IMG/VR virus record: IMGVR_UViG_3300032053_000651
Coordinates: 1 to 20,827 of that record
DNA: 20,827 bases
Direction: 5' to 3' (one strand)
From: a virus
This document shows, piece by piece, positions 1,575 through 18,414 of this stretch (position 1 is the first letter of the stretch; each line of letters opens with the position of its first letter). The notes under the pieces were generated by a model. It ran no database searches. It was not told the origin of the DNA and saw only the letters and a list, made by a program, of their open reading frames with translations. Position numbers and translations under genes: made by a program.

Positions 1575-2393
1575 TCAGGGGTTCAGGGTCGCCGCGAGAC
1601 GCCTCGCGGCTTCGGGTACCGGGTCGGCCGCGGGGGCGGCCGGCCGTCCTTCGGTCCCGCCCCCCGCGCCGCCCACGTCCGGGCCGAGCGTGTCAGGGGC
1701 GAGGGCCGCGAGGAGGTCGGAGACCTCCCCGGTTTTGGCGATCAGTTCCGCGATCTGCCTTTCGACGTTTTCGATTGCGGATTGCGGATTGCGGATTGCG
1801 GATTGAACGGCCTCGGCGAGCGGGGCCTTCAGGCGCGCCATGACGAGGTCCGCCAGGCGGGCCAGGGCCTCGTCGTCGAGGCCGCTCGCCAGGGCCTTCG
1901 CTATCCGCGCGAGGGCGTTGGGATTTGCGCCGACGGGTACGCACGAGACTTCGAGGAGTTCCTGCTTGGTATGATGGTAGATCTGCGTGCTTTTTCCGGA
2001 CCCGCTGGACGTCGTTTTCGATCCCCCCTCCAGGGGCGAGAAGCCGACGCTGAAGGCCCGCATGTGCCGGCCGCGGTAAAGATTTCGAAATTCCGTGCCG
2101 AGGGCCGTCGCGTTGGGTTCCCTCGCGGCGAAACCGATGAACTGTTGCAATTGTCCTTCCGCGTCGACGAAGGTTTTCGGAGCGCTGCCGACGACGGGAC
2201 TGTTACCCGTCGCCAGGCGGTGCTGGTGATATGCGAGGACGACGGGGTTCATCAGGTACGGATCAAGAATCCAGCCCTGCGGCTCTATGACCTCGTTTTC
2301 CCTGTCCAGGGTGTCGTCGCTCGTGACGGCCTGGATGTCCCAGGATTCTTCAGGGGCGGCCACGTTTTTGGTGAAAGAAAACAAACGCCGCAT
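1575..2393 (-). CDS. Prohead protease (HK97 / U35 type)
   Basis: This is the likely maturation protease that trims capsid delta domains inside the prohead. Family landmarks are an early D-R-E-N-E-V-I segment, the AYHQHR stretch carrying the candidate catalytic histidine, MRAFSVGF with the candidate catalytic serine, and the ELLEVSCVPVGANPNA segment that usually closes the domain. I chose the ATG at 2393, just past the portal stop codon, because the protein then begins MRRLFSF and GAGGTG lies upstream. A GTG at 2450 and an ATG at 2432 in the same frame would add 19 or 13 residues but have no clear ribosome site. After the protease domain comes an alanine- and proline-rich tail. A heptamer array sits inside the gene and encodes QSAIRNPQSAIE at the start of that tail, without breaking the frame. 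Confidence 0.88.
   Translation of the reverse strand: MRRLFSFTKNVAAPEESWDIQAVTSDDTLDRENEVIEPQGWILDPYLMNPVVLAYHQHRLATGNSPVVGSAPKTFVDAEGQLQQFIGFAAREPNATALGTEFRNLYRGRHMRAFSVGFSPLEGGSKTTSSGSGKSTQIYHHTKQELLEVSCVPVGANPNALARIAKALASGLDDEALARLADLVMARLKAPLAEAVQSAIRNPQSAIENVERQIAELIAKTGEVSDLLAALAPDTLGPDVGGAGGGTEGRPAAPAADPVPEAARRLAATLNP
1773..1805. repeat. Heptamer array (GATTGCG), 4.7 copies, inside protease gene
   Basis: Four perfect GATTGCG units plus GATTG lie in the coding sequence of the prohead protease. On the coding strand it reads as the heptapeptide SAIRNPQ repeat. It falls just after the catalytic domain, where an insertion is least likely to harm folding. Confidence 0.95.
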
Positions 2394-2403
2394 CGTATCC
2401 ACA

Positions 2404-4893
2404 TCACACCTCGGCTTTCTCTCCGTGTTCATGGGCAGGCGAGGCCGCACGCGCGTTTACGACATCCTTAAAGCCCACAAAACCGGCCGTTTCGCGGCCC
2501 TTAAGCATGGCCGCGACGTCGGCCCGTTCGCCCTCGGCGAAGCGTTTGTAAATGGCCAGGCACTGGCAGTTCACGATCTCTCCGGGCGGCCCGGATGGGT
2601 CGCGCGGGTACATGAGGCGGACCGGCCCTGCGTCCCCCTCGACCACGAACGGGTCGGAGATGGGGCACGGCTCGGCGGCGTAGACGGCCTCGGCCGCGAC
2701 GTGGCCGGGCCGCGGGGCGGCCTCGGGCGCGCGGGTGTGCAGCCAGAGTTTGTGCGTCATTCCGGTCGAAAGGACGCCCTCGTGGCGCGACTTGGAGAGG
2801 ACCTGGCCGACGACGTTCCGGGCCATCATCATCGAGGTCCCCCGGCGATGGCCGAACTGGGCGTCGAGGCGCGAGGCGAGGGCGGGGAAGGATTCCCCCG
2901 CATCCAGTCCTTCCTGGAGGCTGCGCTTCAGGGCCTCGCGCGTGGTGGCATCGATCTTCTTTGACAGGAGGATCGCCTCGCCCCTCAGGGCCGCGATCGG
3001 GCCGGGGTTGGCAAGGAGCCGCCTGAGGGCCTCCGCCAGGGCATCGCCCGCGAGGCCCGACTCGGCGAGGGCCTGGCGGAGGCCGAGTTCGCGGCCGTCC
3101 TTCAAGGCCGAGAAGATGCGCGCCCGGAACGCCGCCACCATCTTCGGGTCCTGGAAAATCTCGATGAGCAGGGCGTCAACCTGGACTGTTTTCTCGGCCG
3201 TTTTTTCGTTCTGCGTTCTGCATTCTGCATTCTGCATTTGCGCGTTGAGGGCCGCCCTTGCCCGGCGTTCCTGCTCGAAGTAATGGCTGCGGAGGACCTG
3301 GCGGACCTGCTGGGCGAGGGGCGCCCAGGATCTGGCCCACGCCCGCCAGATCCGGCCGCGTGCATCCCTCTGTTCGTTTTCAATCCGCGATCCGCAATCC
3401 GCAATCCGCAATCCCGCACCGGCCTGTCCGAGGCCGTCCGTCTCCTCGCCCGCCGGCGGGCCTTCGGGGACGGGCGAGAACCCGCCGCCCGCCGCCACGT
3501 CCGCCGCCGGCAGGAGACCGCTCGGGAGGTAGCCGATGTCGCCCCACGGCTGGTCGGGCATCCCGAGGTCCAGGAGGTCGTTGATCCGGTTGGGCGGGTA
3601 ACTGAGGTCGAAATACTTCTTGGCCGAGTCCAGGCGAGCGAGGCGCATCTCCTGGACGACCGGCAGGTCCTCCACGTCGAACCAGGCGAGGAGCCCCGAA
3701 TCGAACCGCGAGACCAGGTCCTGGACGGCCGGGGCGATGGAATCGAGCAGCGGAAACATCGTTTCCTGCCAGAACTGGCGGAGGGCGTTGGAGGTGTAGG
3801 CGGAGGAGTCGCCCGCCGCATCGACCCACCCGGCCACGACCGGGGGGACGCCGTAGAGGCAGCATATCTCCAGGCGGGTCGTCCGTTTCCCCTGGTCGAA
3901 CTGGAGGTCCGCCATCGTCGATCCGATGACCTGGACCTCTCCGTTCTCAAGGATGAGCGGCCGGCGGGCGTTCATCGGCCCCTGGTACCGCTCCGCCAGG
4001 ACCGCCCTCAGTTCATCCCGCTGTTCCGGCGTCAGCGTCCCCGGCTTGATGGCGATGCCGGGATCCGCCCCGTTGGCGAGCATGGCCGCATTGAAATACG
4101 AGGCGTTATAGTCCGTCGCCACGGCGAGGCGCCCCGGCGTCAAGGGACTCATGCCGCCGAGGGGATCCTTGCCGTCCGTCCAGAGGGCGAAGTAGCGGCA
4201 CTCGTCGAGCGCGAGGGGCAGCCGCGCCCCCGTCTCGGGGTGAGAGAACTCATAGCCAGCCAGGATGGGGATGCCTTCGGGCGTCCGCCGCCAGATCGGC
4301 GTCACGCGCCGGCCGTCGAAGACGTGGACCTCGCCCGGACGCCGGCCCTTCAAGTCCGTGTAGATCCACGCGACGCTCCCCGCCGTGAGGAGCCATCCGA
4401 TGTGGGCCGTCAGGAACGCCGGCCAGTCCTGGTACCCGTTCGGCCGGTCGAGGATCGCCCGCGCATCGCCCTCTTCGACGATCTCTCCGTCCGCCGCCCG
4501 GCCGGTGCAGACGGCCTTGCGCCCGGCGACCGGACGGAGCGTCCGCCGCCGCGAACGGCGGATGTCGGCCGCGAGGCTTTTGGCCCGGACGCGGGCCTCC
4601 GGCCCCTCTCGCATGAGGCGCAAGGGGACGCCCGAGCCGGATTCCTGGATCTTCCGGACGCAGCGGTAGACCCAGAGGACCTGCTGGTACGGCCGGAGCG
4701 GCTCGTGGAGGGCCGCGGCCGAGCCGCCGCCGACCCCGCGAAGCCACGCCTGGGCGGCGCCCGACAGGCCCAGGGTCGCTTCCTTGGCCGTCCCGCCGCC
4801 GCTCATCCGGTCGAGGGCGGCCAGGGCGCGGGCCGTCCGCGTTTCGGATCGCCGGCCCGCCTGGATGGTCGCATTTCGGGTCACGCCGTCCAC
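2404..4893 (-). CDS. Portal protein fused to MuF head-morphogenesis domain
   Basis: This 829-residue protein combines two usually separate head proteins. Residues ~60-470 match the HK97-type phage_portal family: YQQVLWVYRCVRKI near the start, RPNGYQDWPAFL, the NAAMLANGADPGIAI segment and SSAYTSNALRQFWQETMFP near the end of the domain. Residues ~660-780 match the MuF (SPP1 gp7-like) domain, with ARNVVGQVLSKSRHEG and the typical closing EIVNCQC. The linker carries two separate heptamer arrays, read as GLRIADCGSRIENE (~493-505) and NAQMQNAECRTQNEK (~550-563). The GTG at 4893 overlaps the terminase end. A GTG at 4884 forms a 4-nt GTGA overlap with the terminase stop and has AAGG about 10 nt upstream, so it is an equally good start. 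The portal forms the DNA entry ring, and MuF proteins are minor head components. Confidence 0.92.
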   Translation of the reverse strand: MDGVTRNATIQAGRRSETRTARALAALDRMSGGGTAKEATLGLSGAAQAWLRGVGGGSAAALHEPLRPYQQVLWVYRCVRKIQESGSGVPLRLMREGPEARVRAKSLAADIRRSRRRTLRPVAGRKAVCTGRAADGEIVEEGDARAILDRPNGYQDWPAFLTAHIGWLLTAGSVAWIYTDLKGRRPGEVHVFDGRRVTPIWRRTPEGIPILAGYEFSHPETGARLPLALDECRYFALWTDGKDPLGGMSPLTPGRLAVATDYNASYFNAAMLANGADPGIAIKPGTLTPEQRDELRAVLAERYQGPMNARRPLILENGEVQVIGSTMADLQFDQGKRTTRLEICCLYGVPPVVAGWVDAAGDSSAYTSNALRQFWQETMFPLLDSIAPAVQDLVSRFDSGLLAWFDVEDLPVVQEMRLARLDSAKKYFDLSYPPNRINDLLDLGMPDQPWGDIGYLPSGLLPAADVAAGGGFSPVPEGPPAGEETDGLGQAGAGLRIADCGSRIENEQRDARGRIWRAWARSWAPLAQQVRQVLRSHYFEQERRARAALNAQMQNAECRTQNEKTAEKTVQVDALLIEIFQDPKMVAAFRARIFSALKDGRELGLRQALAESGLAGDALAEALRRLLANPGPIAALRGEAILLSKKIDATTREALKRSLQEGLDAGESFPALASRLDAQFGHRRGTSMMMARNVVGQVLSKSRHEGVLSTGMTHKLWLHTRAPEAAPRPGHVAAEAVYAAEPCPISDPFVVEGDAGPVRLMYPRDPSGPPGEIVNCQCLAIYKRFAEGERADVAAMLKGRETAGFVGFKDVVNARAASPAHEHGEKAEV
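3207..3238. repeat. Heptamer array (CATTCTG), 4.6 copies, in portal-MuF linker
   Basis: The units are CGTTCTG twice, CATTCTG twice and a partial CATT. On the coding (minus) strand it encodes MQNAECRTQNE. The reverse-strand unit, GAATGCA, differs from the GATTGCG family at two positions. There is no stop codon in any frame of the CATTCTG unit. Confidence 0.93.
3381..3414. repeat. Heptamer array (CAATCCG), 4.9 copies, in portal-MuF linker
   Basis: CAATCCG units, one of them CGATCCG, lie inside the portal-MuF gene. On the coding strand the array reads GLRIADCGSRIE. It lies between the portal and MuF domains, about 140 bp from the second array in the same linker. Confidence 0.95.
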
Positions 4894-7665: not shown

Positions 7666-8104
7666 GGTCGGAATCTCCTCCAGTTAGCCGCCCATCCCTT
7701 CGGCTTCGCTCAGGGCAGGCTTGATGGGCGCGTGTGGTTGTGCCGTCGCCACATTGCGGATCGCGGATTGCGGATTGCGGATTGACAGTTAGCCGCCCAT
7801 CTTGATGGGCGCGTGTGGTTGTGCCGTTCGGATCGGCGGCGGGGAGTTCCATCGGGCCGAGGCCGGTGAAAAGCCAGGAAAGAGAGACGCCCCTTTCGAG
7901 GGCAAACGCGATCAGGCCGCCAAGGGCTTCCAGCGAAAGATAAATCGCGTTTCCGTTCTCCATCTTCCAGATCTGCTCGTCGCAGATCCCGCCAATGGCC
8001 GACACGAGTTCCTGCCGCGAAAGTTGGAAGCGGGCGCGCAAAAGGCGGATGCGTATCGCAAATTCGGCCGTAAAGGGGCTTTTTTTGGCGGCGTCCGAAG
8101 GCAT
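7658..8104 (-). CDS. XRE-family regulator with a repeat-encoded C-terminal tail
   Basis: Residues ~12-87 form a helix-turn-helix domain (FAIRIRLLRARFQLSRQELVSAIGG through GVSLSWLFTGLGPM). It is a clear relative of the N-terminal domain of the C repressor nearby (FASRLRQMRAALGLSQAEIS through GISLNWLLGGTGPM). There is no peptidase domain. From about residue 94 to the end (148) nearly everything is encoded by dispersed repeats: GTTTRAHQDGRL from one palindrome, VNPQSAIRDPQ from a heptamer array, then GTTTRAHQ...RRDGRL from a second palindrome with an insert. The ATG at 8104 has AGGA 7 nt upstream and a good promoter behind it. It heads the late operon, so it may regulate late genes or its own promoter. 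The gene may descend from a longer repressor whose 3' part was replaced. Confidence 0.75.
   Translation of the reverse strand: MPSDAAKKSPFTAEFAIRIRLLRARFQLSRQELVSAIGGICDEQIWKMENGNAIYLSLEALGGLIAFALERGVSLSWLFTGLGPMELPAADPNGTTTRAHQDGRLTVNPQSAIRDPQCGDGTTTRAHQACPERSRRDGRLTGGDSDRV
7683..7740. repeat. Palindromic element P1 with a 24-bp insert
   Basis: The element begins GTTAGCCGCCCATC and ends TTGATGGGCGCGTGTGGTTG. Compared with P2 it is identical except for 24 extra bases (7697-7720, beginning CCTTCGGCTTCGCTCAGGG), placed exactly between the two arms of the palindrome. It encodes part of the tail of the XRE regulator. Confidence 0.88.
7752..7784. repeat. Heptamer array (GATTGCG), 4.7 copies, between P1 and P2
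   Basis: The units are CATTGCG, GATCGCG, GATTGCG, GATTGCG and GATTG. The array is bracketed by palindromes P1 and P2, and all three lie in the coding sequence of the XRE regulator tail without a stop. Confidence 0.94.
7788..7822. repeat. Palindromic element P2
   Basis: GTTAGC followed by CGCCCATC-TT-GATGGGCG (8-bp arms) and CGTGTGGTTG. It shares the TGACA(G/C)TTAGCC left junction with P4 and the GTGTGGTTGTGCCGT right side with P1. It encodes residues ~94-105 of the XRE regulator. Confidence 0.92.
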
Positions 8105-8236: not shown

Positions 8237-9016
8237 TTATTTTGTTCCTTGAGCCGCCCTCGTTTTGGCTAGGTTCAGTTTCGCCTTTGCCAGATCATCT
8301 TGGGTCTTTCTCAACTCAATTTCAATGGGCACGAGTATCTCTTTTGCCTTACGCACGGCCTCTTGCTTTTCCATTTCGCTTCTAAAATCGCCCCTTCTTG
8401 TGGGGGAAGGATAGGAATACTGTGGTTGACCGGGACGCCCGGGCGGCGGAACCAATCGCACATCAACGGTGGCTTGCTGAAGGTTAGAGACCTTGGTTCT
8501 GGCAAGTCCTGCCCGCCCCTGCAATTCGGTTAACCGGGCCTGAAGATCGGCGACCTCTTTCTCGGCTTCCGCGGTCATCAGATTCAGGGATTTTGAGTGT
8601 TCCGCGGCCTGTGCGGACGCGGACTCCGGCGGGACTGTCGAACCCTTGGCGGCGACCGATGCCGCCACGGCAGCCGACGCTCTCTTGGCCAGATCCAACT
8701 CGGTCTTCAGCCCCGCGATTTCCTGAATGGCGATGGCCTTCTCGGCCGCTCCCTGGGCCTTGAATTGATCGATCTGCTCTTGGGCGGATTGAAATTTTCT
8801 GGACCACTCTGCGCTGGCAAGCCTCTCGGAATCAATGACGGATTGCAGTTCTTCGTTTCTGGCCATTTCCTTGGTATAAAGGGCCTTCCAGGTCTCCAAC
8901 TCTCCGTTCGTTCGGGCTTGGCTCTGGATCCGATTTTCATCACAGCCCGTCAAGGCCAGGCACCCCATGATCAGGATCGAGAACAATCCCCAGGCAACCC
9001 CCTTTGTGGTTGACAT
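8237..9016 (-). CDS. Coiled-coil lipoprotein co-expressed with the repressor
   Basis: This 259-residue protein starts with a lipoprotein signal: a short positive N-terminus, the hydrophobic stretch VAWGLFSILIMGCLALTGC, and lipobox ALTGC with the lipidated Cys at 25. Asp follows at position +2, which in Escherichia coli retains lipoproteins in the inner membrane. The rest is long charged heptad-like helix (~35-115 and ~145-185), a proline-rich hinge (VPPPGRPGQPQYSYPSPT) and a final helix. ATG at 9016 has AAGGAG 7 nt upstream, and that site overlaps the end of the repressor gene only 3 nt away. It should therefore be translated with the repressor during lysogeny. Its base composition is visibly less G+C-rich than its neighbours, suggesting separate acquisition. 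Superinfection exclusion or lysogenic conversion is my inference; I do not recognise the family. Confidence 0.85.
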   Translation of the reverse strand: MSTTKGVAWGLFSILIMGCLALTGCDENRIQSQARTNGELETWKALYTKEMARNEELQSVIDSERLASAEWSRKFQSAQEQIDQFKAQGAAEKAIAIQEIAGLKTELDLAKRASAAVAASVAAKGSTVPPESASAQAAEHSKSLNLMTAEAEKEVADLQARLTELQGRAGLARTKVSNLQQATVDVRLVPPPGRPGQPQYSYPSPTRRGDFRSEMEKQEAVRKAKEILVPIEIELRKTQDDLAKAKLNLAKTRAAQGTK

Positions 9017-9019: not shown

Positions 9020-9934
9020 TCATCTCCTTCTGGCTGGCAAATCCTTAAGAAACGGCAGATGTTCTATAATTTCGTGGGCCGCGACCAACTTTTCAGGCGA
9101 TAGGATGGCGGGCGGGTACTTCCGGTTCAGGCTCTCGAGATGCACCTTTCCGCGCGCCAGTGCCAGGCGCTTGAGCCGGACCAGCCGCTCGCCCTGATCC
9201 TCGAAGATCACACAGCAAACGCCGCCGGTCACCCGCCGTTCCCCGTCGCAGATCACGATATCCCGCTCAAGGTAATCCGGCTCCATCGAATCCCCACAGA
9301 CCTCGACCGCGAACGGTTTGTCGCACGTCCAGTGCCACCTGACGAACTTGTCGGCCAGACCCGCGGGGTACTGTTCGGCGGCGACCGTGTCAAGGCCCGC
9401 CCCGGCGGCGATCTTGCCGAGGATCGGAACCCAGTCGCCGCGCCAGCGATTGGGCAACACTTCGGCCTGGCAGACCTCGTAGCCGGACTCGATCATGCGG
9501 CGAACGGCAAACGGGCGACCGCGCGGAGCGCGGCCGCGTTTGATCCGCAAACCCCCAGCCGCCTTTTTCTCGCTTGGGGTTGCCGGTATCAGCCTCTCGA
9601 TCCGCCGGGAAAACTCCTGAACCTCGGCCGCGATTTGCGTGACCGGAGAAGATTCCGCGGTGGAAAGGCCCGGTCGATCTTCGAGCCACATCGGCCCTGT
9701 GCCCCCCAGGAGCCAGTTGAGCGAAATGCCATGCTCATAACTCCATGTCGCCAAATCCAGAAGCATATCGACCGAAATTCCGGCGGCGGCCCCGCGTTCG
9801 AGGCGACTCCAGGTATCCGTTCGGTAATCGCCGACGGCACGCGAGATTTCGGCCTGCGAGAGACCGAGGGCCGCCCGCATCTGCCTCAGCCGGGATGCGA
9901 ATCCTTCCGAAAAAACGCCTTTTCCCGCCCCCAA
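9020..9934 (-). CDS. C-type repressor: XRE domain plus LexA-like S24 peptidase
   Basis: This 304-residue protein has an N-terminal helix-turn-helix domain (~12-85, FASRLRQMRAALGLSQAEIS and GISLNWLLGGTGPMW), a basic linker and a C-terminal S24 domain. The linker contains KRGRAPRGRP (132-141), whose PRGRP core resembles an AT-hook. The S24 domain has the cleavage-site-like ILGKIAAGAG (Ala177-Gly178), the catalytic serine in VCGDSMEPD (Ser216) and the lysine in VRLKRL (Lys255), 39 residues apart as in LexA-like proteins. Self-cleavage in response to RecA, and hence SOS induction, is therefore expected. The start is TTG at 9934, unusual but supported by GGAGGT 5 nt upstream. It should hold the early operon silent through operators in the gap to the right. 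Confidence 0.95.
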   Translation of the reverse strand: MGAGKGVFSEGFASRLRQMRAALGLSQAEISRAVGDYRTDTWSRLERGAAAGISVDMLLDLATWSYEHGISLNWLLGGTGPMWLEDRPGLSTAESSPVTQIAAEVQEFSRRIERLIPATPSEKKAAGGLRIKRGRAPRGRPFAVRRMIESGYEVCQAEVLPNRWRGDWVPILGKIAAGAGLDTVAAEQYPAGLADKFVRWHWTCDKPFAVEVCGDSMEPDYLERDIVICDGERRVTGGVCCVIFEDQGERLVRLKRLALARGKVHLESLNRKYPPAILSPEKLVAAHEIIEHLPFLKDLPARRR

Positions 9935-9986: not shown

Positions 9987-10014
9987 TTGACACGCTGCCG
10001 ATAGCGTGTATGCT
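9987..10014 (+). promoter_or_regulatory. Candidate early promoter with inverted-repeat operator
   Basis: A consensus TTGACA (9987-9992), a 16-bp spacer and TATGCT (10009-10014) drive toward the early operon. The spacer is a perfect inverted repeat, ACACGCT-N6-AGCGTGT (9990-10009), so a bound dimer would cover the promoter. An AT-rich run just upstream (9958-9986) could act as an UP element. It faces the repressor promoter at 10090-10118, and the two predicted start sites converge about 60 bp apart. Confidence 0.65.
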
Positions 10015-10089: not shown

Positions 10090-10118
10090 AGTATAACCCA
10101 CGTTTGAGGGTTTGTCAA
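10090..10118 (-). promoter_or_regulatory. Candidate repressor promoter
   Basis: On the minus strand TTGACA (10118-10113), a 17-bp spacer and TATACT (10095-10090) form a near-consensus sigma-70 promoter, the best in the window. Transcription would begin near 10083, leaving a leader of about 150 nt before the TTG start of the repressor gene and running across the facing early promoter. Confidence 0.72.
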
Positions 10119-10131: not shown

Positions 10132-10440
10132 ATGAATGAACAGCAAAACGCTTCACGCGTCGTGCCCAGGGTACCCCGGCCGGGGTGCGCTGTCAAGGCC
10201 CGCATCTATGCCGCCGGACTCTCCCTCACTGAAATCGCCCAAGCGGCCCGCATCTCCAGACCCAGCCTGTCGAACTACCTTGCGGGTTACCGGGCCACGT
10301 TCGAGATCCAGTACGACATCTACCTGGCCTTCTGCCGTCTCACGGGGACGGACCTGAAGGCCCTCTCCATTTCGGAGTTCTGGGGCAGCCTCTATCGGAG
10401 ACGGGCATCGGAACAGTCGTCATCGACCTTGGGTTTTTGA
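10132..10440 (+). CDS. Ner/Cro-like helix-turn-helix protein, first early gene
   Basis: This 102-residue protein has an XRE/Ner-like domain, with AAGLSLTEIAQAARISRPSLSNYLAG (~28-53) as the helix-turn-helix and TFEIQYDIYLAFCRLTGTDLKAL after it. By position it matches Mu Ner or lambda Cro: the first gene of the early operon, divergent from the repressor gene, expected to shut down both facing promoters as early transcription builds up. The ATG at 10132 has no Shine-Dalgarno sequence (the upstream bases are pyrimidine-rich), so translation may be weak or the true start may lie a few codons inside, for example the GTG at 10162. The C-terminal ~20 residues are basic and polar. Confidence 0.84.
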   Translation: MNEQQNASRVVPRVPRPGCAVKARIYAAGLSLTEIAQAARISRPSLSNYLAGYRATFEIQYDIYLAFCRLTGTDLKALSISEFWGSLYRRRASEQSSSTLGF

Positions 10441-10545: not shown

Positions 10546-11085
10546 ATGAAAAAAATACCAACCGTCTTCGAACGCGATTGGGAGGGCGATAAGGCGCTGG
10601 TTACGCGCAAAATCCTCGTGAGTATCCCTGCAGGCGCGGTTGCAACCCGGAAGCGGGATGGCATGGCCTGTATGGTTCGGGGCGGAAGCCTATTTAAGCG
10701 GCACGATGTGAAGGCGGGCAAGGTGCCGCCTGCAGGCTTCGAGCCGTGCGAGGTTAACCCGGATGCCGAAACGGGACACTGGCCCGGCTGGATCGCAGTC
10801 CGCGATGCTCCTGAAAACAAGCACCTTCTTTCCGTTTCCGCCCCGTCGGCCGATGGAACTTACGAGTTCTGCGGGCCTAAAGTTCAAGGCAATCCCGAGG
10901 GTCTCTCGGAACATCGTTTTTTTGCTCATGGCGGGGAAGTCCTTGGTGTAGTGCCCGTTGATTTCGACGGCCTGAAATCTTACCTCGCCGAACATGCCGT
11001 CGAGGGCATTGTCTGGTGGCAGGCAAATAAACCGCTTGCAAAGATCAAGCGGAGGAACTTCGGCCTGTCGTGGCCGATCAGGTAA
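10546..11085 (+). CDS. RNA ligase of the T4 Rnl1-like / DUF5565 type
   Basis: This 179-residue protein carries the ordered motifs of the covalent nucleotidyltransferase superfamily. Motif I is TRKRDGMACMV with the candidate AMP-accepting lysine K36 (K-x-D-G). It is followed by LFKR, a motif III-like TYEFCGPKVQGNP (E107), motif IV VEGIVWW (E153-G154) and motif V KIKRRNFGL (K166/K168). The opening KKIPTVFERD and the short length match the T4 RNA ligase 1-like DUF5565 proteins. Such enzymes join 5'-phosphate and 3'-hydroxyl RNA ends using ATP. ATG at 10546 has GAAGGGA 10 nt upstream; the open frame extends 27 codons further back with no ribosome site. It is the second early gene, between the Ner-like protein and the transposition genes. 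Repair of tRNAs cut by host anticodon nucleases is a reasonable but untested role. Confidence 0.82.
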   Translation: MKKIPTVFERDWEGDKALVTRKILVSIPAGAVATRKRDGMACMVRGGSLFKRHDVKAGKVPPAGFEPCEVNPDAETGHWPGWIAVRDAPENKHLLSVSAPSADGTYEFCGPKVQGNPEGLSEHRFFAHGGEVLGVVPVDFDGLKSYLAEHAVEGIVWWQANKPLAKIKRRNFGLSWPIR

Positions 11086-11171: not shown

Positions 11172-11738
11172 GTGAGCGATCCAACAGTTGAATCCGCAAT
11201 CCGCGATCCGCAATCCGCAATGACGCCCGAGGACCTCGACGTGTTCATCCGCCTGGTGCACGAGGCCCTGAGCCACGCCCTGGGTGCTGCGCACCTCCGG
11301 CCCCCCCGGGCCGGCTCCGATCTCCACGTGGCCCTCTGGCACCTCGCCAAGGCGGAGCGCGATGCCCAGACGGAACTCTCTCAAAACGGGGAACGGGAAA
11401 CCGGGAACCGGGAACCGGACGACCCGTTGTCCAATCCGCAATCCGCAATCCGCAATCCGCAATTTGTTCGCCCCGCCTGCAACGTCATAGCCGAGATCCC
11501 GCCGGGCGGGCAGATCAGTTGCGGCCCCCTGCGTATCCGGCGGCCGGACATCGGGTCGGACGTGGTCATCGAACTGGGGGGCGAGATCCGGATCAACGCC
11601 ATCCTGGCGAGCGCGCACGTGCGGATCAGGACGGACGGCCGGTGGTACCCGGAAGTCCAGGCATCGGAGGCCGACCTGCCCCTGGCCCTCTTCGGCCAGG
11701 GCGACACCCAGCGCGAGATCCGCCCGGAGGACGTGTGA
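11172..11738 (+). CDS. Unknown two-part protein encoded just before the transposase
   Basis: I do not recognise this 188-residue protein. It has a helical part (PEDLDVFIRLVHEALSHALG through LHVALWHLAKAERDA, ~19-67) and a beta-rich part (PACNVIAEIPPGGQISCG through VRIRTDGRWYPEVQA, ~102-165). These are joined by a linker encoded by two heptamer arrays (GERETGNREPDD and NPQSAIRNPQ). A third array encodes ESAIRDPQSA right after the start. The GTG at 11172 has GGAGGT 5 nt upstream; an ATG at 11220 just after the first array lacks such a site. The stop overlaps the transposase ATG by one base, so the two are probably translationally coupled, and a role with transposition is possible. Confidence 0.78.
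   Translation: MSDPTVESAIRDPQSAMTPEDLDVFIRLVHEALSHALGAAHLRPPRAGSDLHVALWHLAKAERDAQTELSQNGERETGNREPDDPLSNPQSAIRNPQFVRPACNVIAEIPPGGQISCGPLRIRRPDIGSDVVIELGGEIRINAILASAHVRIRTDGRWYPEVQASEADLPLALFGQGDTQREIRPEDV
11191..11220. repeat. Heptamer array (AATCCGC), 4.3 copies, at a protein N-terminus
   Basis: AATCCGC, AATCCGC, GATCCGC, AATCCGC and AA, beginning 7 codons after the GTG start of the unknown gene and encoding SAIRDPQSA. Confidence 0.94.
11386..11417. repeat. Heptamer array (GGGAACC) in a protein linker
   Basis: Imperfect copies of GGGAACC, encoding NGERETGNREP. Only 14 bp separates it from a second array of the other family, and both lie in the linker of the unknown protein. Confidence 0.85.
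11432..11463. repeat. Heptamer array (CAATCCG), 4.6 copies, in the same linker
   Basis: Four perfect CAATCCG units plus CAAT, encoding SNPQSAIRNPQ in the linker of the unknown protein before the transposase. Confidence 0.95.
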
Positions 11739-13909
11739 TGGATTCCGCTGCCGTTTTTCAATCCGCAATCCGCAATCCGCAATCCGCAATTTCTGTGGCC
11801 GCCCCCGCCGGATACCTCTCGGTCGAACGGGCCGCCCGGCTCCTCGGCCGGTCCGAACGGACGGTCCAGGATTCCTGCGCGGCGGGGCGACTCAAGGCGG
11901 TCCAGGCGGGCGACCGGTGGTTCATCGACCCGGCCTCGCGGCCGGAATTCAAGATCGTCTCCGGCGGCGACCCCGAATCCTCCCGGGTGCCCCACGCCGC
12001 CGGAGACCTCCTTTGCGAACTCTCGGACCGGAAGCGCCGGGACCTCTTGGCCCGCCACGCCATGGTCGAGGCCTACATGGCCTCCGCCCGCGGCCGCGCC
12101 CGGGGCGATCTGGTGCGGTTTCAGGCCGACTGGATCGCCGCCTGGAACGCGATGCACCCCGCGACGGCCGTGTCCGCCCCGACCCTCCGGCGGCTGCTGC
12201 GGCTGTACCGGAGCGGCGGCCTCGCGGCCCTGGTGGATCGCCGCCGCAACCCCCGCGACTCGGGGTTGTCGCCGGAGGCCCTGGACTTCGCCGCGGGCCT
12301 CGCCCTTTCGGAATCGAAGCCGAAACTGGCGGGCATCTACAACCAGGTCCTGGCCCTCGCGCCGACGATGAACTGGACGCTCCCATCCCGCGGCCACTTC
12401 CTCCGCCGCCTCAAGCGCTACATCGACCCAAAGGTCTGGGCCCTGGGCCGCGATCCCCGGCTCTACCGCCAGCGGATGCAACTCGTGCTCCGCCGCGACT
12501 GGTCGAAGGTCGCCGCAATGGAACTCTGGGTCGCCGATCACCGGACGCTCGATGTGTGGGTGCCCCGCCAGGCGGATGACGGCCGGTGGTCCTGGCAGCG
12601 GCCGTGGCTTACGGTGCTGCTCGATGCCCGGTCCTGGAAGCCGGTCGGATGGACGCTGGCCTGGGATGCCCCCGACTCCAACCGCATCATGGGCACGTTC
12701 GCCCGCGCTGTCCGCGAGCACGGAAAGCCGGACTGGATGTACCTGGACAACGGAAAGGATTTCAGGGCCAAGCGGTTCGCCGGCGGGCGGGCGGGGGCGG
12801 GCGGACGCGCTGGGATGGTGGGCCTCATCGAGGGGGATGCCGTCGAGCCGATCCTTTCGGTCCTCGGCGTCCAGGTGGTCTGGGCCGATCCGTACAACGC
12901 CAGGGCGAAGGTCGTGGAAAACTGGTTCGGCCGGGCGATGGCGGAACTCTTCGACCGAAACTGGGAGACCTACTGCGGCCGGTCGACGGATGCCCGCCCC
13001 GAGGCCGTGACGAAGATGGATGCCGCCGAGGCGGCGCGGGGCGGCCTCTCGATCGATGCCGTCCGCCAGGCCTTCGCCGACTGGGTCCGCGACGATTACG
13101 GCCGATGCGAGTGCCCGGTCTCGGCCTCCCGAGGCCTCTCGGTCGAACAGGCGTTTCTCCGACTCCGCAAGGCCGGCTTCGAGGCGGTCATGCCCGCCGC
13201 GGAGACCCTGGCGATGCTCCTCCTGCCGACCAAGCCCCTCACGGTCAGGAGCACCGGCATCGCCCTTGCGGAGTTCGGATTGACCTATCTCGCCCCCGAA
13301 CTGGAGGACCTCCGCGGGGCGTCCGGGCGGGATGAATCGCGGAAGGTGGTCGTGCGCTACGACCCCGGCGACTCGTCGCGGATCTTCATCTTCGAGCGCT
13401 CGGGGCCGTTTCTCTGCGTCGCCCGGCCCTACCTCGAGCGCGGCGTTCACCCCCTCGCGCGGGCGGGCACGCCGGAGGACCGGGAGCAACTCGCCGACGC
13501 CCTGGGCGCGCAGAAACATGCGGAGAAGGGCGTCCGCGAACAGGTCCGCCGGTTGCGGGCGGTCGCCGCCCGGTACGCCCCGGCCCTCGCCCGCCAGTGG
13601 GCGGCCCACGCGGGCCTGGGCCTCCTGGATGAGACGGTCGCCCCGCCCGCCGAGATGCCCATCATCCGCCTGATGGGCGCGCCCGACCGGGCCGCCCAGG
13701 CGGGGCGGGAGGATGCCCTCGAGCGCCTCCGCCGGGTCCGCCAATCGCGGATCGCGGTCGGGGTGGAAGCCCTGTCTGAAACGAAAGAACGGGACGGCAC
13801 ACGAACCGCCCCGGAAAACGTCTTGGATGCGCTGCCGGATGAGCCGGCGGCCCAGGAAAAGGAGTCCACCTATGATCATGGAACGGGAGATTTTGACGAC
13901 CGCGCCTGA
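11738..13909 (+). CDS. A: Mu A-like DDE transposase
   Basis: This 723-residue protein is the strand-transfer enzyme that inserts and replicates the phage. After a repeat-encoded N-terminus (FQSAIRNPQSAI), residues 26-65 form an excisionase/MerR-type helix-turn-helix (YLSVERAARLLGRSERTVQ). A second helical DNA-binding region follows (SAPTLRRLLRLYRSGGLAAL). The RNase H-like core carries Asp267 in WVADHRTLDVW, Asp337 in WMYLDNGKDF and Glu394 in KVVENWFGRA. This spacing is close to the D269/D336/E392 triad recalled for Mu A. The beta-barrel region follows, with a helical basic C-terminus that would contact the B ATPase. ATG at 11738 overlaps the previous stop by one base and has GGAGG 7 nt upstream. 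The frame is open further upstream but lacks a comparable start. Confidence 0.96.
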   Translation: MDSAAVFQSAIRNPQSAISVAAPAGYLSVERAARLLGRSERTVQDSCAAGRLKAVQAGDRWFIDPASRPEFKIVSGGDPESSRVPHAAGDLLCELSDRKRRDLLARHAMVEAYMASARGRARGDLVRFQADWIAAWNAMHPATAVSAPTLRRLLRLYRSGGLAALVDRRRNPRDSGLSPEALDFAAGLALSESKPKLAGIYNQVLALAPTMNWTLPSRGHFLRRLKRYIDPKVWALGRDPRLYRQRMQLVLRRDWSKVAAMELWVADHRTLDVWVPRQADDGRWSWQRPWLTVLLDARSWKPVGWTLAWDAPDSNRIMGTFARAVREHGKPDWMYLDNGKDFRAKRFAGGRAGAGGRAGMVGLIEGDAVEPILSVLGVQVVWADPYNARAKVVENWFGRAMAELFDRNWETYCGRSTDARPEAVTKMDAAEAARGGLSIDAVRQAFADWVRDDYGRCECPVSASRGLSVEQAFLRLRKAGFEAVMPAAETLAMLLLPTKPLTVRSTGIALAEFGLTYLAPELEDLRGASGRDESRKVVVRYDPGDSSRIFIFERSGPFLCVARPYLERGVHPLARAGTPEDREQLADALGAQKHAEKGVREQVRRLRAVAARYAPALARQWAAHAGLGLLDETVAPPAEMPIIRLMGAPDRAAQAGREDALERLRRVRQSRIAVGVEALSETKERDGTRTAPENVLDALPDEPAAQEKESTYDHGTGDFDDRA
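11759..11790. repeat. Heptamer array (CAATCCG), 4.6 copies, at the transposase N-terminus
   Basis: Four perfect CAATCCG units plus CAAT, starting 7 codons after the transposase ATG and encoding QSAIRNPQSAI immediately before the first helix-turn-helix domain. Confidence 0.95.
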
Positions 13910-14999
13910 GGGCGCGGCAGCCGGAGGAGCACTGACGGTGGCTGAGCGCAAGGCGATCATCGAGCAACTCGAATCGCTCCAGTTGGCGGAGAACCTCTCG
14001 AACTCCGCGATCGCCCGGCTGCTGGACTGCTCGGCGGCGACCTGGAGCCTGATCCGGAAGGGCCGGTACTCGGGCAACGTCGATAAGTTTCTCCACCGGG
14101 CCGAGGTCGTTCTCAAGGCCCGGGCGGAGCGGAAGGACCTGCCGACCTCGGAGTTCGTCGAGACGTCGATCGGCCGGGGGATCCTCAAAATCTGCCGCCT
14201 GGCGGCGGACTTGGGCGACATGGCCCTCGTGCTGACGCCGTCCGGCTGCGGCAAGACCGCGGCCTTGCGCGAGTTCGCCAGGCGCCGCGGCGAGCAGGCG
14301 ATCTACATCCAGGCCGGGGAGTATGGGCGAACAAAACTGGCGCTCCTGAGGGAACTCGCCCGAAGCCTCGGGGCGGATGCGGCCGCCGAACGCGGGACGA
14401 TCGAATCGACGGCCGCCGCCGTCCGCGCGAAACTCGCCGCCGCCTACTCCGGCGGGATCGGCGCGGCGAAGATTCTCATCATCGACGAGGCCCAGACCCT
14501 GGAGGCCTCGGCCTTGAATCTCCTCCGAAACCTCCACGACGACCCCGACTGCCAGGCCGTGATCGTCCTGGGCGACACCTGGCGGTTGCACGCCGAACTC
14601 GGCCGGATCGGCGGAATCGCGGGCGGATACGAGCAACTCACGAGCCGGTTCGGGGCGGTCTTTGCCCTGTCCCTGACCGACCCGATCCCCGAGGCCGACG
14701 TCGCCCTTCTCGGGCGGGCCGTCATCGACGCCCTGGGCTGCCGGGGCGATCTGCCGGGCGACTCCATCAAGTGGCTCGCCCGCCAGGCCCAGACCAAGGG
14801 CAAACTCCGGAACGTAGTCAAGTTGCTCCGCGCCTGTTACCACGTTGCCGACTGCGCGGGCCGGCGGGCGGCGTTCACCGTCCACGAACTCGACTACGCC
14901 GCGGGCGTCCGCGGCGGCCTCTCGCAACTGGAGCACAAGGCCCCGCCCTGGGCGCGGGCCAAGGAAGACCAGCCCGCCCCGGCGGCCGTCGCCGGATGA
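13872..14999 (+). CDS. B: Mu B-like transposition AAA+ ATPase
   Basis: This 375-residue protein is the target-capture ATPase partner of the transposase. Residues ~40-65 hold a helix-turn-helix (NLSNSAIARLLDCSAATWSL). The AAA+ core has Walker A LTPSGCGKTAAL (K128, T129) and Walker B ILIIDEAQ (D205, E206), followed by a sensor-like VIVLGDTWRL. The C-terminal part is helical (KLRNVVKLLRACYHVA), as in Mu B and ExeA-like relatives. In Mu, B binds DNA as filaments, directs A to target sites and supports target immunity. ATG at 13872 has AAGGAG 7 nt upstream, and the gene overlaps the transposase end by 38 nt in another frame. Longer in-frame versions starting at 13713 lack a ribosome site. Confidence 0.95.
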   Translation: MIMEREILTTAPEGAAAGGALTVAERKAIIEQLESLQLAENLSNSAIARLLDCSAATWSLIRKGRYSGNVDKFLHRAEVVLKARAERKDLPTSEFVETSIGRGILKICRLAADLGDMALVLTPSGCGKTAALREFARRRGEQAIYIQAGEYGRTKLALLRELARSLGADAAAERGTIESTAAAVRAKLAAAYSGGIGAAKILIIDEAQTLEASALNLLRNLHDDPDCQAVIVLGDTWRLHAELGRIGGIAGGYEQLTSRFGAVFALSLTDPIPEADVALLGRAVIDALGCRGDLPGDSIKWLARQAQTKGKLRNVVKLLRACYHVADCAGRRAAFTVHELDYAAGVRGGLSQLEHKAPPWARAKEDQPAPAAVAG

Positions 15000-15001: not shown

Positions 15002-15036
15002 AGTTAGCCGCCCATCTCGATGGGCGCGTGTTGTTG
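15002..15036. repeat. Palindromic element P3
   Basis: AGTTAGC then CGCCCATC-TC-GATGGGCG and CGTGTTGTTG, filling most of the gap between the B and gam genes. The AAGGAGG of gam begins 2 nt after its end, so a hairpin would sit directly upstream of the ribosome site. Confidence 0.92.
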
Positions 15037-15049
15037 TAAGGAGGTTGCC

Positions 15050-15541
15050 GTGAAGGCAAAAACGAACGCGGCCCCGGCGGTGACGCTGGGCGATCTTGGG
15101 GCGGTCGATAAGGCCCTCGAACTCATCGCGGCGGCCCAGGCGGATGCCGGGCGGCTGGCGGCGGAAGTCGAGGGGCGGATCGCCGCGATCAAGGCCGACT
15201 ACGATGTCCGGGTCAAGAGCCTCCTGGCCCTGGCCGACGAAGAACGCGGCCTGGTGGAGGCGTTCGCCGAGATCCATCCGGAGTTGTTCGACCCGGTCCG
15301 GCACCAGGACCTGCCCCACGGCCGGATCGGATACCGGCGGGCGGTCTCGGTCACGCTCAAGCACAAGGCCGAGACGGTCGTCGCGGCCCTCGAATCGCGG
15401 GGCCTTAACGACGCGGTAAACGTCAAGAAAAGCCCCAATAAGGACGTCCTCGCGGCCTACGACGACGAGACCCTGGCGGCGGTCGGGGCGAGGAAGACCG
15501 TCCGCGACCAGTTCTATATCGACATCCGAAAGGCGGGGTAG
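15050..15541 (+). CDS. gam: Gam-like host-nuclease inhibitor
   Basis: This 163-residue protein matches the Mu Gam family. It has a long coiled-coil helix (GAVDKALELIAAAQADAGRL through VRVKSLLALADEERGLVEAF), a short beta segment (GRIGYRRAVSVTLKHKAETV) and a C-terminal helical part ending RKTVRDQFYIDI. Mu Gam is a Ku-like dimer that threads onto linear DNA ends and shields them from RecBCD-type exonucleases. Here it would protect incoming or replicating phage DNA. The GTG start at 15050 is fixed by AAGGAGG 5 nt upstream. It follows the B gene with the palindrome P3 between them, in the usual Mu-like order. Confidence 0.92.
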   Translation: MKAKTNAAPAVTLGDLGAVDKALELIAAAQADAGRLAAEVEGRIAAIKADYDVRVKSLLALADEERGLVEAFAEIHPELFDPVRHQDLPHGRIGYRRAVSVTLKHKAETVVAALESRGLNDAVNVKKSPNKDVLAAYDDETLAAVGARKTVRDQFYIDIRKAG

Positions 15542-16305: not shown

Positions 16306-16767
16306 ATGAACACGGCCGTCAATCCGCAATCCGCAATCCGCAATCCGCAATCCGGCGACCGCCGGACCCTGCGGTCGCCCGAGGAAAAGGCCGCGGACCT
16401 CCGGACGGCCGCCGAGGTCTTCGTCGCATACCTCCGGATGTACTGCGTCGGCCGCGACCAGGCCAGGCCGAAGTGGCGGGTCCTGGCGGAGATCCGGCGG
16501 GCGGGCGCCAAGGTCACAAGCCGCGAGTACGACGACCTGCCGCGCCTCGCCCTCGACCTGGGCGACGACGTCGGCACGTGGCGGAAGGGGGCGTTCTTCA
16601 TCGTGGACCGCGAGGACTTCGATGCGGCTGCCGGCAACCTGGTCGTCAGGTTCGAACTGATGCGGCGGCATCACGACATCCTTCTCGCGCGGCGCCGGAA
16701 GCGGTTCCCGGAAGAGCCGCTCTTCGATAGCGCGGAGTGCGGAATGACACTTAGCCGCCCATCTTGA
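16306..16767 (+). CDS. Unknown early protein with repeat-encoded ends
   Basis: This 153-residue protein has a repeat-encoded N-terminus (NPQSAIRNPQS) followed by a folded region: EEKAADLRTAAEVFVAYLRMY, RPKWRVLAEIRRAGAKVTSREYDDLPRLALDLG and GTWRKGAFFIVDREDFDAAAG. The central part could be a winged-helix domain, but I do not recognise the family. The last residues (SAECGMTLSRPS) are encoded by a heptamer array and by palindrome P4, whose loop supplies the TGA stop. The ATG at 16306 has no strong Shine-Dalgarno (CAAG nearby). Confidence 0.74.
   Translation: MNTAVNPQSAIRNPQSGDRRTLRSPEEKAADLRTAAEVFVAYLRMYCVGRDQARPKWRVLAEIRRAGAKVTSREYDDLPRLALDLGDDVGTWRKGAFFIVDREDFDAAAGNLVVRFELMRRHHDILLARRRKRFPEEPLFDSAECGMTLSRPS
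16320..16354. repeat. Heptamer array (CAATCCG), 5 perfect copies, at a protein N-terminus
   Basis: Five exact CAATCCG units, the longest perfect run in the window, starting 14 bases after the ATG of the unknown gene and encoding NPQSAIRNPQS. Confidence 0.96.
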
Positions 16768-16818: not shown

Positions 16819-17590
16819 GAAGGCCCAAAACCCGCGACTGTATGAATTTCTCCTGGCGGAGGCCCGCGCGGCGCGGCGGCGCAGACGGCGGCGGGCGCTC
16901 GCGGACAACGGGTTCTGGATCGCACTGGCGATCTTCTGCGCCTGCGTCGCCGGGCTGCTCGTCGCCGGGTTCATCGCCGGCTGCCATGACCCGTGCCGGA
17001 CGCAGAGCGACGAGCAATACCGATACCACGAACGCGAAACGCGGAACCCGGAACTCGGAACGGACCCGGCGGGACGCCACCTTCCGGCCATCGGGCAAAA
17101 GGACTGTGGGCCGACCGCGAGCCGCCGACCGACTCGGGCGGCGGAGGACGCCGCCATCCTCCCGGCGCAACCTCCCGTCCAAAATGCCGTAATCGTTCCG
17201 AGTTCCGGGTTCCGGGTTTCGCGCTTGTTGGACGCGATCCGCCAGGTCGAATCGAGCGGCCGGCCTGACCCGCCGGACCGCGACGGCGGCCGGAGCATCG
17301 GCCCGTACCAGATCCAACGCGATTACTGGACCGACGCCGGGGTTCCCTGGCCCTACCAGGCCGTGCGGAGCGAGCGCGAGGGGCGGGCGACGGTCCTCGC
17401 CTACTGGCGCCGGCGGGCGCCGGAGGCCCTGGCCGCGGGCGACCTCCAGGTTCTCGCTCGCATCCACAACGGCGGCCCCAAGTGGGCGGCCAAGCCGACC
17501 ACACTCGACTACTGGCGGCGCGTGCTGACCGTTCTTCCGTCCGTCCGATTCAACGCGGAGAACGCAGAGAAGGCGGAGACAAAGGGATGA
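16808..17590 (+). CDS. Membrane- or lipid-anchored i-type lysozyme (endolysin)
   Basis: The C-terminal domain (~138-245) has the destabilase/invertebrate-type lysozyme pattern: AIRQVESSGRP with candidate Glu148, DRDGGRSIGPYQIQRDYW with candidate Asp159, LARIHNGGP and TTLDYWRRV. It should cleave the glycan strands of peptidoglycan. The N-terminus is arginine-rich (RAARRRRRRR), followed by a hydrophobic stretch (NGFWIALAIFCACVAGLLVAGF) and IAGC, which could be a lipobox, so export as an anchored protein is likely. Between anchor and enzyme lies a polar linker holding two copies of a repeat in opposite orientation. The tail FNAENAEKAETKG is encoded by another repeat. I chose ATG at 16808 because GGAG lies 6 nt upstream, both within the heptamer array. 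A GTG at 16775 would add 11 residues. Its place in the early operon is unusual. Confidence 0.82.
   Translation: MRSEKAQNPRLYEFLLAEARAARRRRRRRALADNGFWIALAIFCACVAGLLVAGFIAGCHDPCRTQSDEQYRYHERETRNPELGTDPAGRHLPAIGQKDCGPTASRRPTRAAEDAAILPAQPPVQNAVIVPSSGFRVSRLLDAIRQVESSGRPDPPDRDGGRSIGPYQIQRDYWTDAGVPWPYQAVRSEREGRATVLAYWRRRAPEALAAGDLQVLARIHNGGPKWAAKPTTLDYWRRVLTVLPSVRFNAENAEKAETKG
17033..17223. repeat. Inverted pair of 29-bp repeats inside the lysozyme gene
   Basis: The left arm is 17033-17061 (CGCGAAACGCGGAACCCGG...) and the right arm is 17195-17223. The reverse complement of the right arm matches the left at 28 of 29 bases. Each arm is made of GGAAC[CT]C heptamers. They encode RETRNPELGT and VPSSGFRVSR in the linker. 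The RNA could fold into a long hairpin across 133 nt. Confidence 0.93.
17549..17579. repeat. Nonamer repeat (AACGCGGAG) at lysozyme 3' end
   Basis: A 31-bp segment of three degenerate 9-bp units encodes FNAENAEKAE just before the lysozyme stop. It matches 29 of 31 bases with the copy at 19823-19853, which ends the GemA-like gene. Confidence 0.9.
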
Positions 17591-18414
17591 TCCGCGGAAA
17601 CCGCCATCACCTGGAGGCCGACGCCGAGAGGATCGTCGCGGGGATCCTGGCCGGCCGCCGCACGCTCGCTGGAACCGCCAGGAGATACCGCGTCACCTAC
17701 GACACCTTCCAAAAGTTCTGGAAGGCGCACACCACGCCCGAACAACGGCAGGAGGTCCTGCGGCGCTTCGCCGCGCGGCGGCGCGAATACAACAAAAAGG
17801 GGCGGTTCCGAAAGGGGCGCCGCCCTTGGAACAGGGATATGAAGGGCTTGCACATCTCCCCCGCCACGGAATTCAAGCCAGGCACATTGAACGGCCGCGC
17901 CCTCGCCCTACTGGCGAAGGTCGGCGAGATCCGCATCCGCCGCGACAGGCCCTCGGGACCCAGGAGCCTTCGCCGGCGCCGGCGGTTCATCAAGGTCCGG
18001 AGCGATGGGTCCCCCAAGTCCCGGTGGGTGCCCCTGGCCCGGCACCTCTGGCAGGAGGCCCACGGCCCGATCCCGCGGGGGATGCTGGTCATCTACAAAA
18101 ACGGCCGCACCCTCGACGACCGGCTTGACAATTACCGTCTCGTCAACCGCGCCGACCACCTGGCCCTCGAGGAGATCCTCATCCCCGGGATGCGCGAGCG
18201 GTGCACCGAAAACGGGCGGACGGCCCTGGCCGTGTTTCACCTGGAACGGCGGACCATCCGCGCCGCCCTTTTGCCGTCCGCAAAAAGGCGCATCCGCATG
18301 TGCGTCGCCTGCGGCTGGTCGCCCAAGCGGTTCGCCAAGGTCAGACGGTGCCTGAAGTGCGGCTGCACCGTCTTTGAGAAGGTCCTCGTCAACATGGAGG
18401 CAATCACATCATGA
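17587..18414 (+). CDS. HNH-like DNA-binding protein with zinc ribbon, catalytic site degenerate
   Basis: This 275-residue protein has an N-terminal HTH-like region (LAGTARRYRVTYDTFQKFW), the basic FRKGRRPWNRDMKG segment common in phage HNH proteins, and then an HNH-like block at ~151-193: HLWQEAHGPIPRGMLVIYKNGRTLDDRLDNYRLVNRADH. In active homing-type enzymes the centre reads V-x-H-x-D/N-G; here the histidine is replaced (VIYKNG), while the N-G and D-N-x-x-L-V parts remain. The C-terminal CVACGW...CLKCGC is a four-cysteine zinc ribbon. It overlaps the lysozyme stop by ATGA. It may be a nickase, an inactive DNA binder or a regulator; cleavage activity is doubtful. Confidence 0.74.
   Translation: MIRGNRHHLEADAERIVAGILAGRRTLAGTARRYRVTYDTFQKFWKAHTTPEQRQEVLRRFAARRREYNKKGRFRKGRRPWNRDMKGLHISPATEFKPGTLNGRALALLAKVGEIRIRRDRPSGPRSLRRRRRFIKVRSDGSPKSRWVPLARHLWQEAHGPIPRGMLVIYKNGRTLDDRLDNYRLVNRADHLALEEILIPGMRERCTENGRTALAVFHLERRTIRAALLPSAKRRIRMCVACGWSPKRFAKVRRCLKCGCTVFEKVLVNMEAITS

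What the first reader, a model, noticed from the sequence alone, without database searches (positions are those of the whole stretch)
10546..11085. RNA ligase in the early operon of a Mu-like phage
A compact T4 Rnl1-like ligase with motifs KRDG, TYEFCG, EGIV and KIKRRNFG lies between the Ner-like gene and the transposition genes. RNA ligases in T4 reverse damage by host anticodon nucleases. I do not know of one as a standard Mu-like phage gene, so this may be an early anti-defence function. No kinase/phosphatase partner is nearby, so it would need ends that are already ligatable or a host end-healing enzyme.
Basis: partly seen in the sequence, partly recalled or inferred. Interest (0 to 1): 0.72.

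Follow-up and report, generated by a model that had tools for sequence, protein, structure and literature searches.

The report
RNA-joining enzyme in a Mu-like phage
A Mu-like phage carries, among its first-expressed genes, a very small RNA-joining enzyme of the same family as human RNA ligase 1, probably to mend transfer RNAs that the bacterium cuts to stop the infection; the enzyme family is known in phages, the setting is less usual.

Summary
ORF 10546-11085 (+, 179 aa) encodes a nucleotidyltransferase-type RNA ligase with every catalytic residue in place. Its AlphaFold model (pLDDT 96.4) matches the solved Yasminevirus RLIG1 at Z 18.2, 2.1 A over 173 residues. The family is RLIG1/DUF5565 (PF17720), not T4 Rnl1: only the catalytic half of T4 Rnl1 matches (Z 7.5). 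It lies second in the presumed early operon, after Ner, behind the only + strand promoter-like site in the scanned stretch. The nearest Mu-like relative found (51% in MuA) has Ner and the next gene adjacent and no ligase, so the ligase is accessory. One other Mu-like phage (1 of 83 ligase-bearing viral contigs) carries the family elsewhere in its genome. In bacteria, 26 of 75 relatives lie just downstream of co-oriented tRNA genes (3 of 75 have one just downstream), which points to tRNA. An anti-immunity role for viral RLIG1 is already predicted in print (PMC11494293). Best reading: standalone tRNA repair against host cleavage, probably of 5'-phosphate/3'-hydroxyl breaks. Activity, substrate and anti-defence role are inferred, not shown.

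The parts
10546..11085 (+). RLIG1/DUF5565-type ATP-dependent 5'-3' RNA ligase, 179 aa (K36 nucleophile)
10132..10440 (+). Ner-like HTH regulator, first gene of the presumed early operon
   Evidence: HTH_3 2.5e-5 over cut-off; 49% identical to the equivalent gene of sister phage L176
9987..10014 (+). promoter-like site TTGACA-16-TATGCT, candidate early promoter reading into ner and the ligase
   Evidence: 2 sites found against 0.3 expected in shuffles; consensus match only
10090..10118 (-). promoter-like site TTGACA-17-TATACT facing the other way, candidate repressor promoter
   Evidence: consensus match only
9020..9934 (-). S24-type phage repressor
   Evidence: Peptidase_S24 1.2e-13
11172..11738 (+). 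188-aa early gene of unknown family; directly follows Ner in the sister phage
   Evidence: no Pfam/PHROG/NCBIfam match; 33% identical to L176 13001-13501
11735..13909 (+). MuA transposase
   Evidence: phrog_310 2.4e-78, Mu-transpos_C 8.2e-12
13812..14999 (+). MuB-type transposition ATPase (start not fixed)
   Evidence: phrog_296 1.4e-45
15020..15541 (+). Mu Gam-like protein
   Evidence: PF07352 3.2e-25

Best explanation
It is a standalone, minimal (catalytic domain only) RLIG1-family RNA ligase, expressed early in lytic growth. Mechanism: K36 is adenylylated by ATP/Mg2+, AMP is passed to a 5'-phosphate RNA end, and a 3'-hydroxyl end attacks to reseal the strand. The most likely job is to reseal tRNAs cut in or near the anticodon loop by host defence or toxin nucleases, so that translation can go on. 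As the phage fragment shows no end-healing enzyme, it is best suited to breaks that already bear 5'-phosphate and 3'-hydroxyl, as left by metal-dependent effectors such as the AriB Toprim nuclease of PARIS. Shown here: family, complete active site, fold, position after ner, absence of a recognised partner in this 20.8-kb fragment, accessory status. Inferred: early expression, enzymatic activity, tRNA as substrate, anti-defence purpose, the kind of break.
For: Family and active site. The residues shown to matter in YspRLIG1 (K73, D75, R89, E174, H195, E240, K253; PMC11494293 section 8) align with K36, D38, R52, E107, H128, E153, K166 here (chain numbering is one higher than the paper's). Fold: Z 18.2 to YspRLIG1. 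Bacterial and viral RLIG1 homologues ligated tRNA halves with 5'-P/3'-OH in vitro (PMC11494293). tRNA genes lie within 1 kb upstream, co-oriented, in 26 of 75 bacterial loci against 3 of 75 downstream (5 of 80 loci dropped for short flanks); a published neighbourhood analysis found tRNA genes in over 20% of DUF5565 neighbourhoods (PMC10364804). A huge-phage homologue has eight tRNA genes just upstream (L187). Position: only + strand promoter-like site, and no + strand terminator-like site between ner and the 188-aa gene. HAD_PNKP phosphatase in 0 of 50 ligase-bearing viral contigs tested, of 83. AriB leaves 3'-OH and 5'-PO4 (PMC12409363 section 24).
Against: No biochemical or genetic test. 17 of the 26 tRNA-linked loci are Flavobacterium, so they are few independent events. 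In viral contigs the tRNA link is weak (2 of 74 upstream, 1 of 74 downstream) and this window has no tRNA gene. The record is a 20.8-kb virus record of unknown completeness, so a kinase/phosphatase could lie outside it. Host and its defences are unknown. Human RLIG1 is linked to rRNA integrity under oxidative stress (PMC11747885 and PMC13244148, abstracts), so tRNA need not be the only substrate.
Confidence: 0.6

Rival explanations
1. The ligase acts after end-healing: a host kinase/phosphatase (or a phage one in the unsequenced part) converts cyclic-phosphate/5'-OH breaks of PrrC/RloC-like anticodon nucleases to ligatable ends, and this gene supplies only the joining step, as in T4.
For: The T4 Pnk/Rnl1 precedent (PMC11494293 discussion passage). 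The jumbo-phage survey says kinases and phosphoesterases generally accompany ATP-grasp ligases in jumbo phages (PMC7824862 passages). The window may be a fragment.
Against: No partner recognised in the window. HAD_PNKP in 0 of 50 tested viral contigs. A kinase-type AAA_33 over its cut-off in 3 of 50, of which one ORF is an adenylosuccinate synthetase, one is a 171-aa AAA_33 ORF in a 499-kb record and one was not followed up.
Confidence: 0.2
2. General RNA maintenance rather than anti-defence: repair of phage or host RNA broken during infection or stress, or circularisation/processing of some phage RNA.
For: Human RLIG1 work points to RNA integrity under oxidative stress (PMC11747885, PMC13244148, abstracts only). 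The family is also present in many bacterial genomes, where an anti-defence role is less obvious.
Against: Sporadic presence (absent from the sister phage; different place in the other Mu-like phage) and repeated virus-bacterium exchange (at least 11 label changes forced by well-supported branches) look like an accessory conflict gene.
Confidence: 0.15
3. A lysogenic-conversion or host-benefit cargo gene that protects the lysogen (e.g. against toxins or other phages) rather than the infecting phage.
For: Lower GC than neighbours downstream (0.576, third position 0.62, against 0.67-0.71 and 0.82-0.88 for the 188-aa gene, MuA, MuB and Gam) suggests recent acquisition.
Against: It points the same way as ner and MuA/B, on the side that a Mu-type repressor would shut in the prophage; no separate promoter-like site in the gap before it.
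Confidence: 0.05

Closest known systems
RLIG1 / C12orf29 / DUF5565 (Pfam PF17720), Yasminevirus RLIG1 (PDB 9c6l, 9c6m)
   Same: Same fold (Z 18.2, 2.1 A over 173 residues, 28% identity), same motifs I, Ia, III, IIIa, IV, V, no separate RNA-binding domain
   Different: 179 aa against 277 in the PDB construct: the stretches between motifs are much shorter; phage early-operon setting
PHROG 14301 'RNA ligase' (Cellulophaga phage phi10:1, Mycobacterium phages such as Gengar, Burkholderia phage FLC9)
   Same: Same size and full-length match; 34-42% identity; phi10:1 is the best viral structure match. A 'C. phage' RLIG1 was among the homologues cloned in PMC11494293; that it is phi10:1 is my inference
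   Different: 6 of the 20 named phage records were searched and none has the Mu transposase family
Bacteriophage T4 Rnl1 (with Pnk)
   Same: Catalytic domain fold (5tt6, Z 7.5 over 124 residues), chemistry, presumed purpose
   Different: No C-terminal domain, no Pfam match to the Rnl1 family, no Pnk in the fragment
Naegleria gruberi RNA ligase (5cot, 6vt8)
   Same: Catalytic domain fold (Z 8.2-8.3 over 133-134 residues)
   Different: Lacks its N-terminal OB domain (match starts at chain residue 144; domain named in a PMC9931718 passage)

Membership tests
RLIG1 / DUF5565 (PF17720) | Profile match over the curated cut-off | tested here: met
   35.3 bits against 25, residues 103-178; full-length PHROG 14301 match
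RLIG1 / DUF5565 (PF17720) | Conserved KxDG and the motif residues shown to matter in YspRLIG1 (K, D, R, E, H, E, K) | tested here: met
   All seven present; K36/D38/R52/E107/H128/E153 in 158 of 158 and K166 in 157 of 158 aligned homologues
RLIG1 / DUF5565 (PF17720) | Minimal nucleotidyltransferase fold without RNA-binding or OB domain | tested here: met
RLIG1 / DUF5565 (PF17720) | Autoadenylylation and 5'-P/3'-OH RNA ligation | not testable with these tools
   needs purified protein
T4 Rnl1 family | Sequence profile match (RNA_lig_T4_1, PF09511; name recalled, accession in PMC11494293) | tested here: not met
   Only RLIG1 (and a sub-threshold AlkA_N) within E 1 in Pfam
T4 Rnl1 family | C-terminal RNA-binding domain after motif V | tested here: not met
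   Protein ends 13 residues after K166; model matches 5tt6 residues 73-249 of 375 only
T4-type tRNA repair pathway | Linked end-healing kinase/phosphatase | tested here: inconclusive
   None recognised in the window, but the record may be a fragment
Mu-like (transposable) phage | MuA, MuB, Gam, Gp27, repressor and Ner-type regulator | tested here: met
Mu-like (transposable) phage | Random insertion with host DNA at the ends, transposase-bound end sites | not tested
   record without defined ends

The most novel reading that the evidence does not exclude
Phage RLIG1 ligases form a widespread 'healing-free' class of tRNA-repair counter-defence, matched to metal-dependent tRNA-cutting effectors (Toprim AriB of PARIS; PIN-domain toxins such as VapC, whose end chemistry I recall) that leave 5'-phosphate/3'-hydroxyl breaks, in contrast to the T4 Pnk-Rnl1 route matched to PrrC-type nucleases; in bacteria the same enzyme is wired to tRNA arrays as a repair-and-replace cassette.
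Probability: 0.3. Interest if true: 0.6.

Novelty: new member of a known kind. Interest (0 to 1): 0.33.

Why it matters
It gives a well-defined, very small ligase in a temperate transposable phage, so the printed guess that viral RLIG1 counters host immunity could be tested in a simple one-gene assay. The lack of an end-healing partner makes a sharp prediction about which tRNA-cutting defences it should and should not undo.

Tried and rejected
T4 Rnl1 membership: rejected on profile and domain content. Chance ORF: rejected by full-length homology. Longer TTG start at 10465: rejected, as most homologues begin at the ATG. Degenerate enzyme: the stretch before motif I is 4-5 residues shorter than in most relatives, but the model is confident there (block means 93-98) and all catalytic residues are present. 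NCBIfam and PADLOC gave no match for the ligase.

Relatives of this phage by MuA in the viral collection: only L007/L176; named phages match MuA at 23-28% over part of the protein, so the host stays unknown. The first genome-contig scan with the single protein found nothing; the second, allowed after an empty first, used alignment A1. Position of the window ligase in the family tree is unresolved: long branch (1.01), no starred set holds it, and the program warns that long branches meet. A weak transposase hit in contig G033 (13.3 bits, E 7.8e-4) was not counted as Mu-like. Neighbour clustering around 169 ligase loci (a first version that failed to place the ligase gene in 39 of 169; genes were re-picked, clustering not repeated) showed a shared neighbourhood mainly in Flavobacterium and in five Chloroflexi/Anaerolineae loci. 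A planned family scan of the direct neighbours of the viral ligases was not run. Literature searches for a Mu-like phage with an RNA ligase, or for a phage RNA ligase tested against tRNA-cutting defence, listed none that I recognised as such; I read only listings there, and subscription papers and preprints are largely outside that library.

Full report
What is there. The ORF at 10546-11085 (+) encodes 179 aa. Pfam gives RLIG1 (PF17720) at 7.8e-9, over its cut-off. PHROGs gives family 14301, 'RNA ligase', at 1.5e-47 over residues 1-174. A sequence search of solved structures gives only Yasminevirus RLIG1 (9c6l/9c6m) as convincing hits, E 5e-11 with the single protein and 2.5e-25 with a 91-row profile.

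Active site. In YspRLIG1 the residues K73, D75, R89, E174, H195, E240 and K253 are assigned to motifs I-V and mutations of these residues are reported to reduce activity (PMC11494293 section 8). By the printed alignments (chain numbering one higher than the paper's) they correspond to K36, D38, R52, E107, H128, E153 and K166. Of 168 ligases gathered (window included), 10 with a stop in the matched stretch were dropped; in the remaining 158 all these residues are invariant except K166, which is R in one. Because most of those loci were found with motif-I patterns, I also aligned 11 homologues found by plain tblastn: K36, D38, E107, E153 and K166 are kept in 11 of 11, R52 and H128 in 10 of 11 (the exception, a Streptomyces plasmid protein, is the row least like the window's protein).

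Fold. AlphaFold2 on the 91-row alignment gives mean pLDDT 96.4, pTM 0.88. VIA-align 2 puts YspRLIG1 first (Z 18.2, 2.1 A, 173 aligned), then Naegleria RNA ligase (Z 8.3), T4 Rnl1 (Z 7.5, residues 73-249 of 375) and T4 Rnl2 (Z 7.0). In the viral structure library the best match is Cellulophaga phage phi10:1. So it is an RLIG1-type ligase reduced to the catalytic domain, not a T4 Rnl1 family member.

Setting. The window is a 20,827-base virus record. It has Mu hallmarks: MuA and MuB, Gam, Gp27 and an S24 repressor, plus terminase, portal and capsid genes. The ligase lies 105 bp after the Ner-like gene and 86 bp before an unknown 188-aa gene that precedes MuA. Two sigma-70-like sites were found where 0.3 are expected: one on + (9987-10014) reading into ner, one on - (10118-10090) reading into the repressor; none lies in the ner-ligase gap, and no + strand terminator-like site lies between ner and the 188-aa gene. 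The face-to-face arrangement recalls Mu Pe/Pc (recalled). Early expression is therefore likely but not shown. A purine-rich AGAAGGGA lies 11-18 bases upstream of the ATG.

Accessory status. The only MuA relative in the viral collection (L007/L176, 51%) shares repressor, ner, the 188-aa gene, MuA, MuB, Gam and head genes in the same order, but its ner and 188-aa homologue overlap by four bases (7263/7260 in L007) and it has no ligase. Whether this is gain here or loss there cannot be told. GC (0.576; third position 0.62) is lower than in the 188-aa gene, MuA, MuB and Gam (0.67-0.71; 0.82-0.88), though genes on the repressor side are also low. Among 83 distinct ligase-bearing viral contigs, one (G034/L175) has a clear Mu transposase (E 2.1e-84) and one a weak, uncounted hit. 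In L175 the ligase sits directly after a late-activator (Mor/C-type) gene, a different place. None of 6 named phage records searched has the transposase (the other 14 of the 20 records were not searched).

The family at large. Relatives were found in 246 viral and 188 genome stretches, of which the best 80 each were kept, in 20 of 50,697 phage records and 12 of 72,556 plasmid records. On a FastTree of 158 rows, viral and bacterial copies are mixed: 27 label changes, at least 11 forced by starred branches, against a mean of 53 in shuffles. The window's own position is unresolved.

Substrate clue. In the bacterial loci with at least 1 kb on each side (75 of 80), a tRNA gene lies within 1 kb upstream in 26, always co-oriented, and within 1 kb downstream in 3. 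17 of the 26 are Flavobacterium; the others include Rhizobacter (Albitalea), Phormidium, Actinomadura (2) and Pseudoflavitalea. Viral contigs show it rarely (2 of 74 upstream, 1 of 74 downstream), but a 636-kb uncultured phage has eight tRNA genes upstream of its ligase. PMC10364804 (passages) had already reported tRNA genes over-represented near DUF5565. The window itself has no tRNA gene.

End healing. T4-type repair of PrrC cuts needs Pnk (PMC11494293 passage). No healing enzyme is recognised in the window. Of 83 viral ligase contigs, 50 were tested: HAD_PNKP in 0, AAA_33 over its cut-off in 3, one of them an adenylosuccinate synthetase ORF. PARIS AriB leaves 3'-OH and 5'-PO4 ends (PMC12409363 section 24), the ends RLIG1 joins. 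Hence the specific proposal that such phage ligases need no healing partner. Against this, the jumbo-phage survey reports that healing enzymes usually accompany ATP-grasp ligases there (PMC7824862 passages).

What is known. PMC9931718 (passages) and PMC11494293 (first part, passages and section 8) established RLIG1 as a 5'-3' RNA ligase; the latter tested bacterial and viral homologues on tRNA halves and predicted that viral RLIG1 may combat host immunity. This locus is therefore a new member of a known kind, in an unusual carrier.

Verdict. Observation confirmed; interpretation partly supported. The enzyme assignment is secure; the anti-defence function is the best-supported but untested explanation.

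Noticed in passing
window 1773-1805, 3381-3414, 7753-7784, 11191-11221, 11432-11463, 11759-11790, 16320-16354, 19994-20025: A 7-base tandem repeat (CAATCCG/ATTGCGG, 4-5 copies) is scattered over eight places, some inside genes (N-terminus of MuA, the 188-aa gene), with other 7-base arrays at 3209, 11385, 16786, 17030, 17195 and 19893. Its core was found in none of the other loci held at that point, the sister phage included.
   Followed up: partly
L133, L134, L139-L143, L145-L149, L153, L154, L157, L162, L170: In Flavobacterium the RLIG1 gene follows an array of co-oriented tRNA genes whose members vary between species, and is mostly followed by a 261-273-aa ATP-grasp-like gene (weak RimK, E 0.075), often with Band-7, metallophosphoesterase and RNase T-type genes: a possible RNA repair-and-replace island.
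   Followed up: partly
L175 8139-8696 (-): A second Mu-like phage contig (IMGVR_UViG_3300044825_002856) carries an RLIG1 ligase right after a Mor/C-type late activator.
   Followed up: yes
window 8237-9016 (-): 259-aa protein with an N-terminal lipobox-like LTGC and a coiled-coil-looking rest (by eye), next to the repressor, low GC, no family match and no match in the sister phage: a candidate lysogenic-conversion gene.
   Followed up: partly
L046 codon 40, L083 codon 12, L098 codon 28, L156 codon 28 of the ligase: Otherwise conserved ligases with an in-frame stop (TAG, TAG, TGA, TAG), in L046 inside motif I: pseudogenes, errors or a reassigned stop.
   Followed up: no
window 17584-18411 (+): HNH_3 endonuclease gene (4.8e-9) among the rightward genes.
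   Followed up: no
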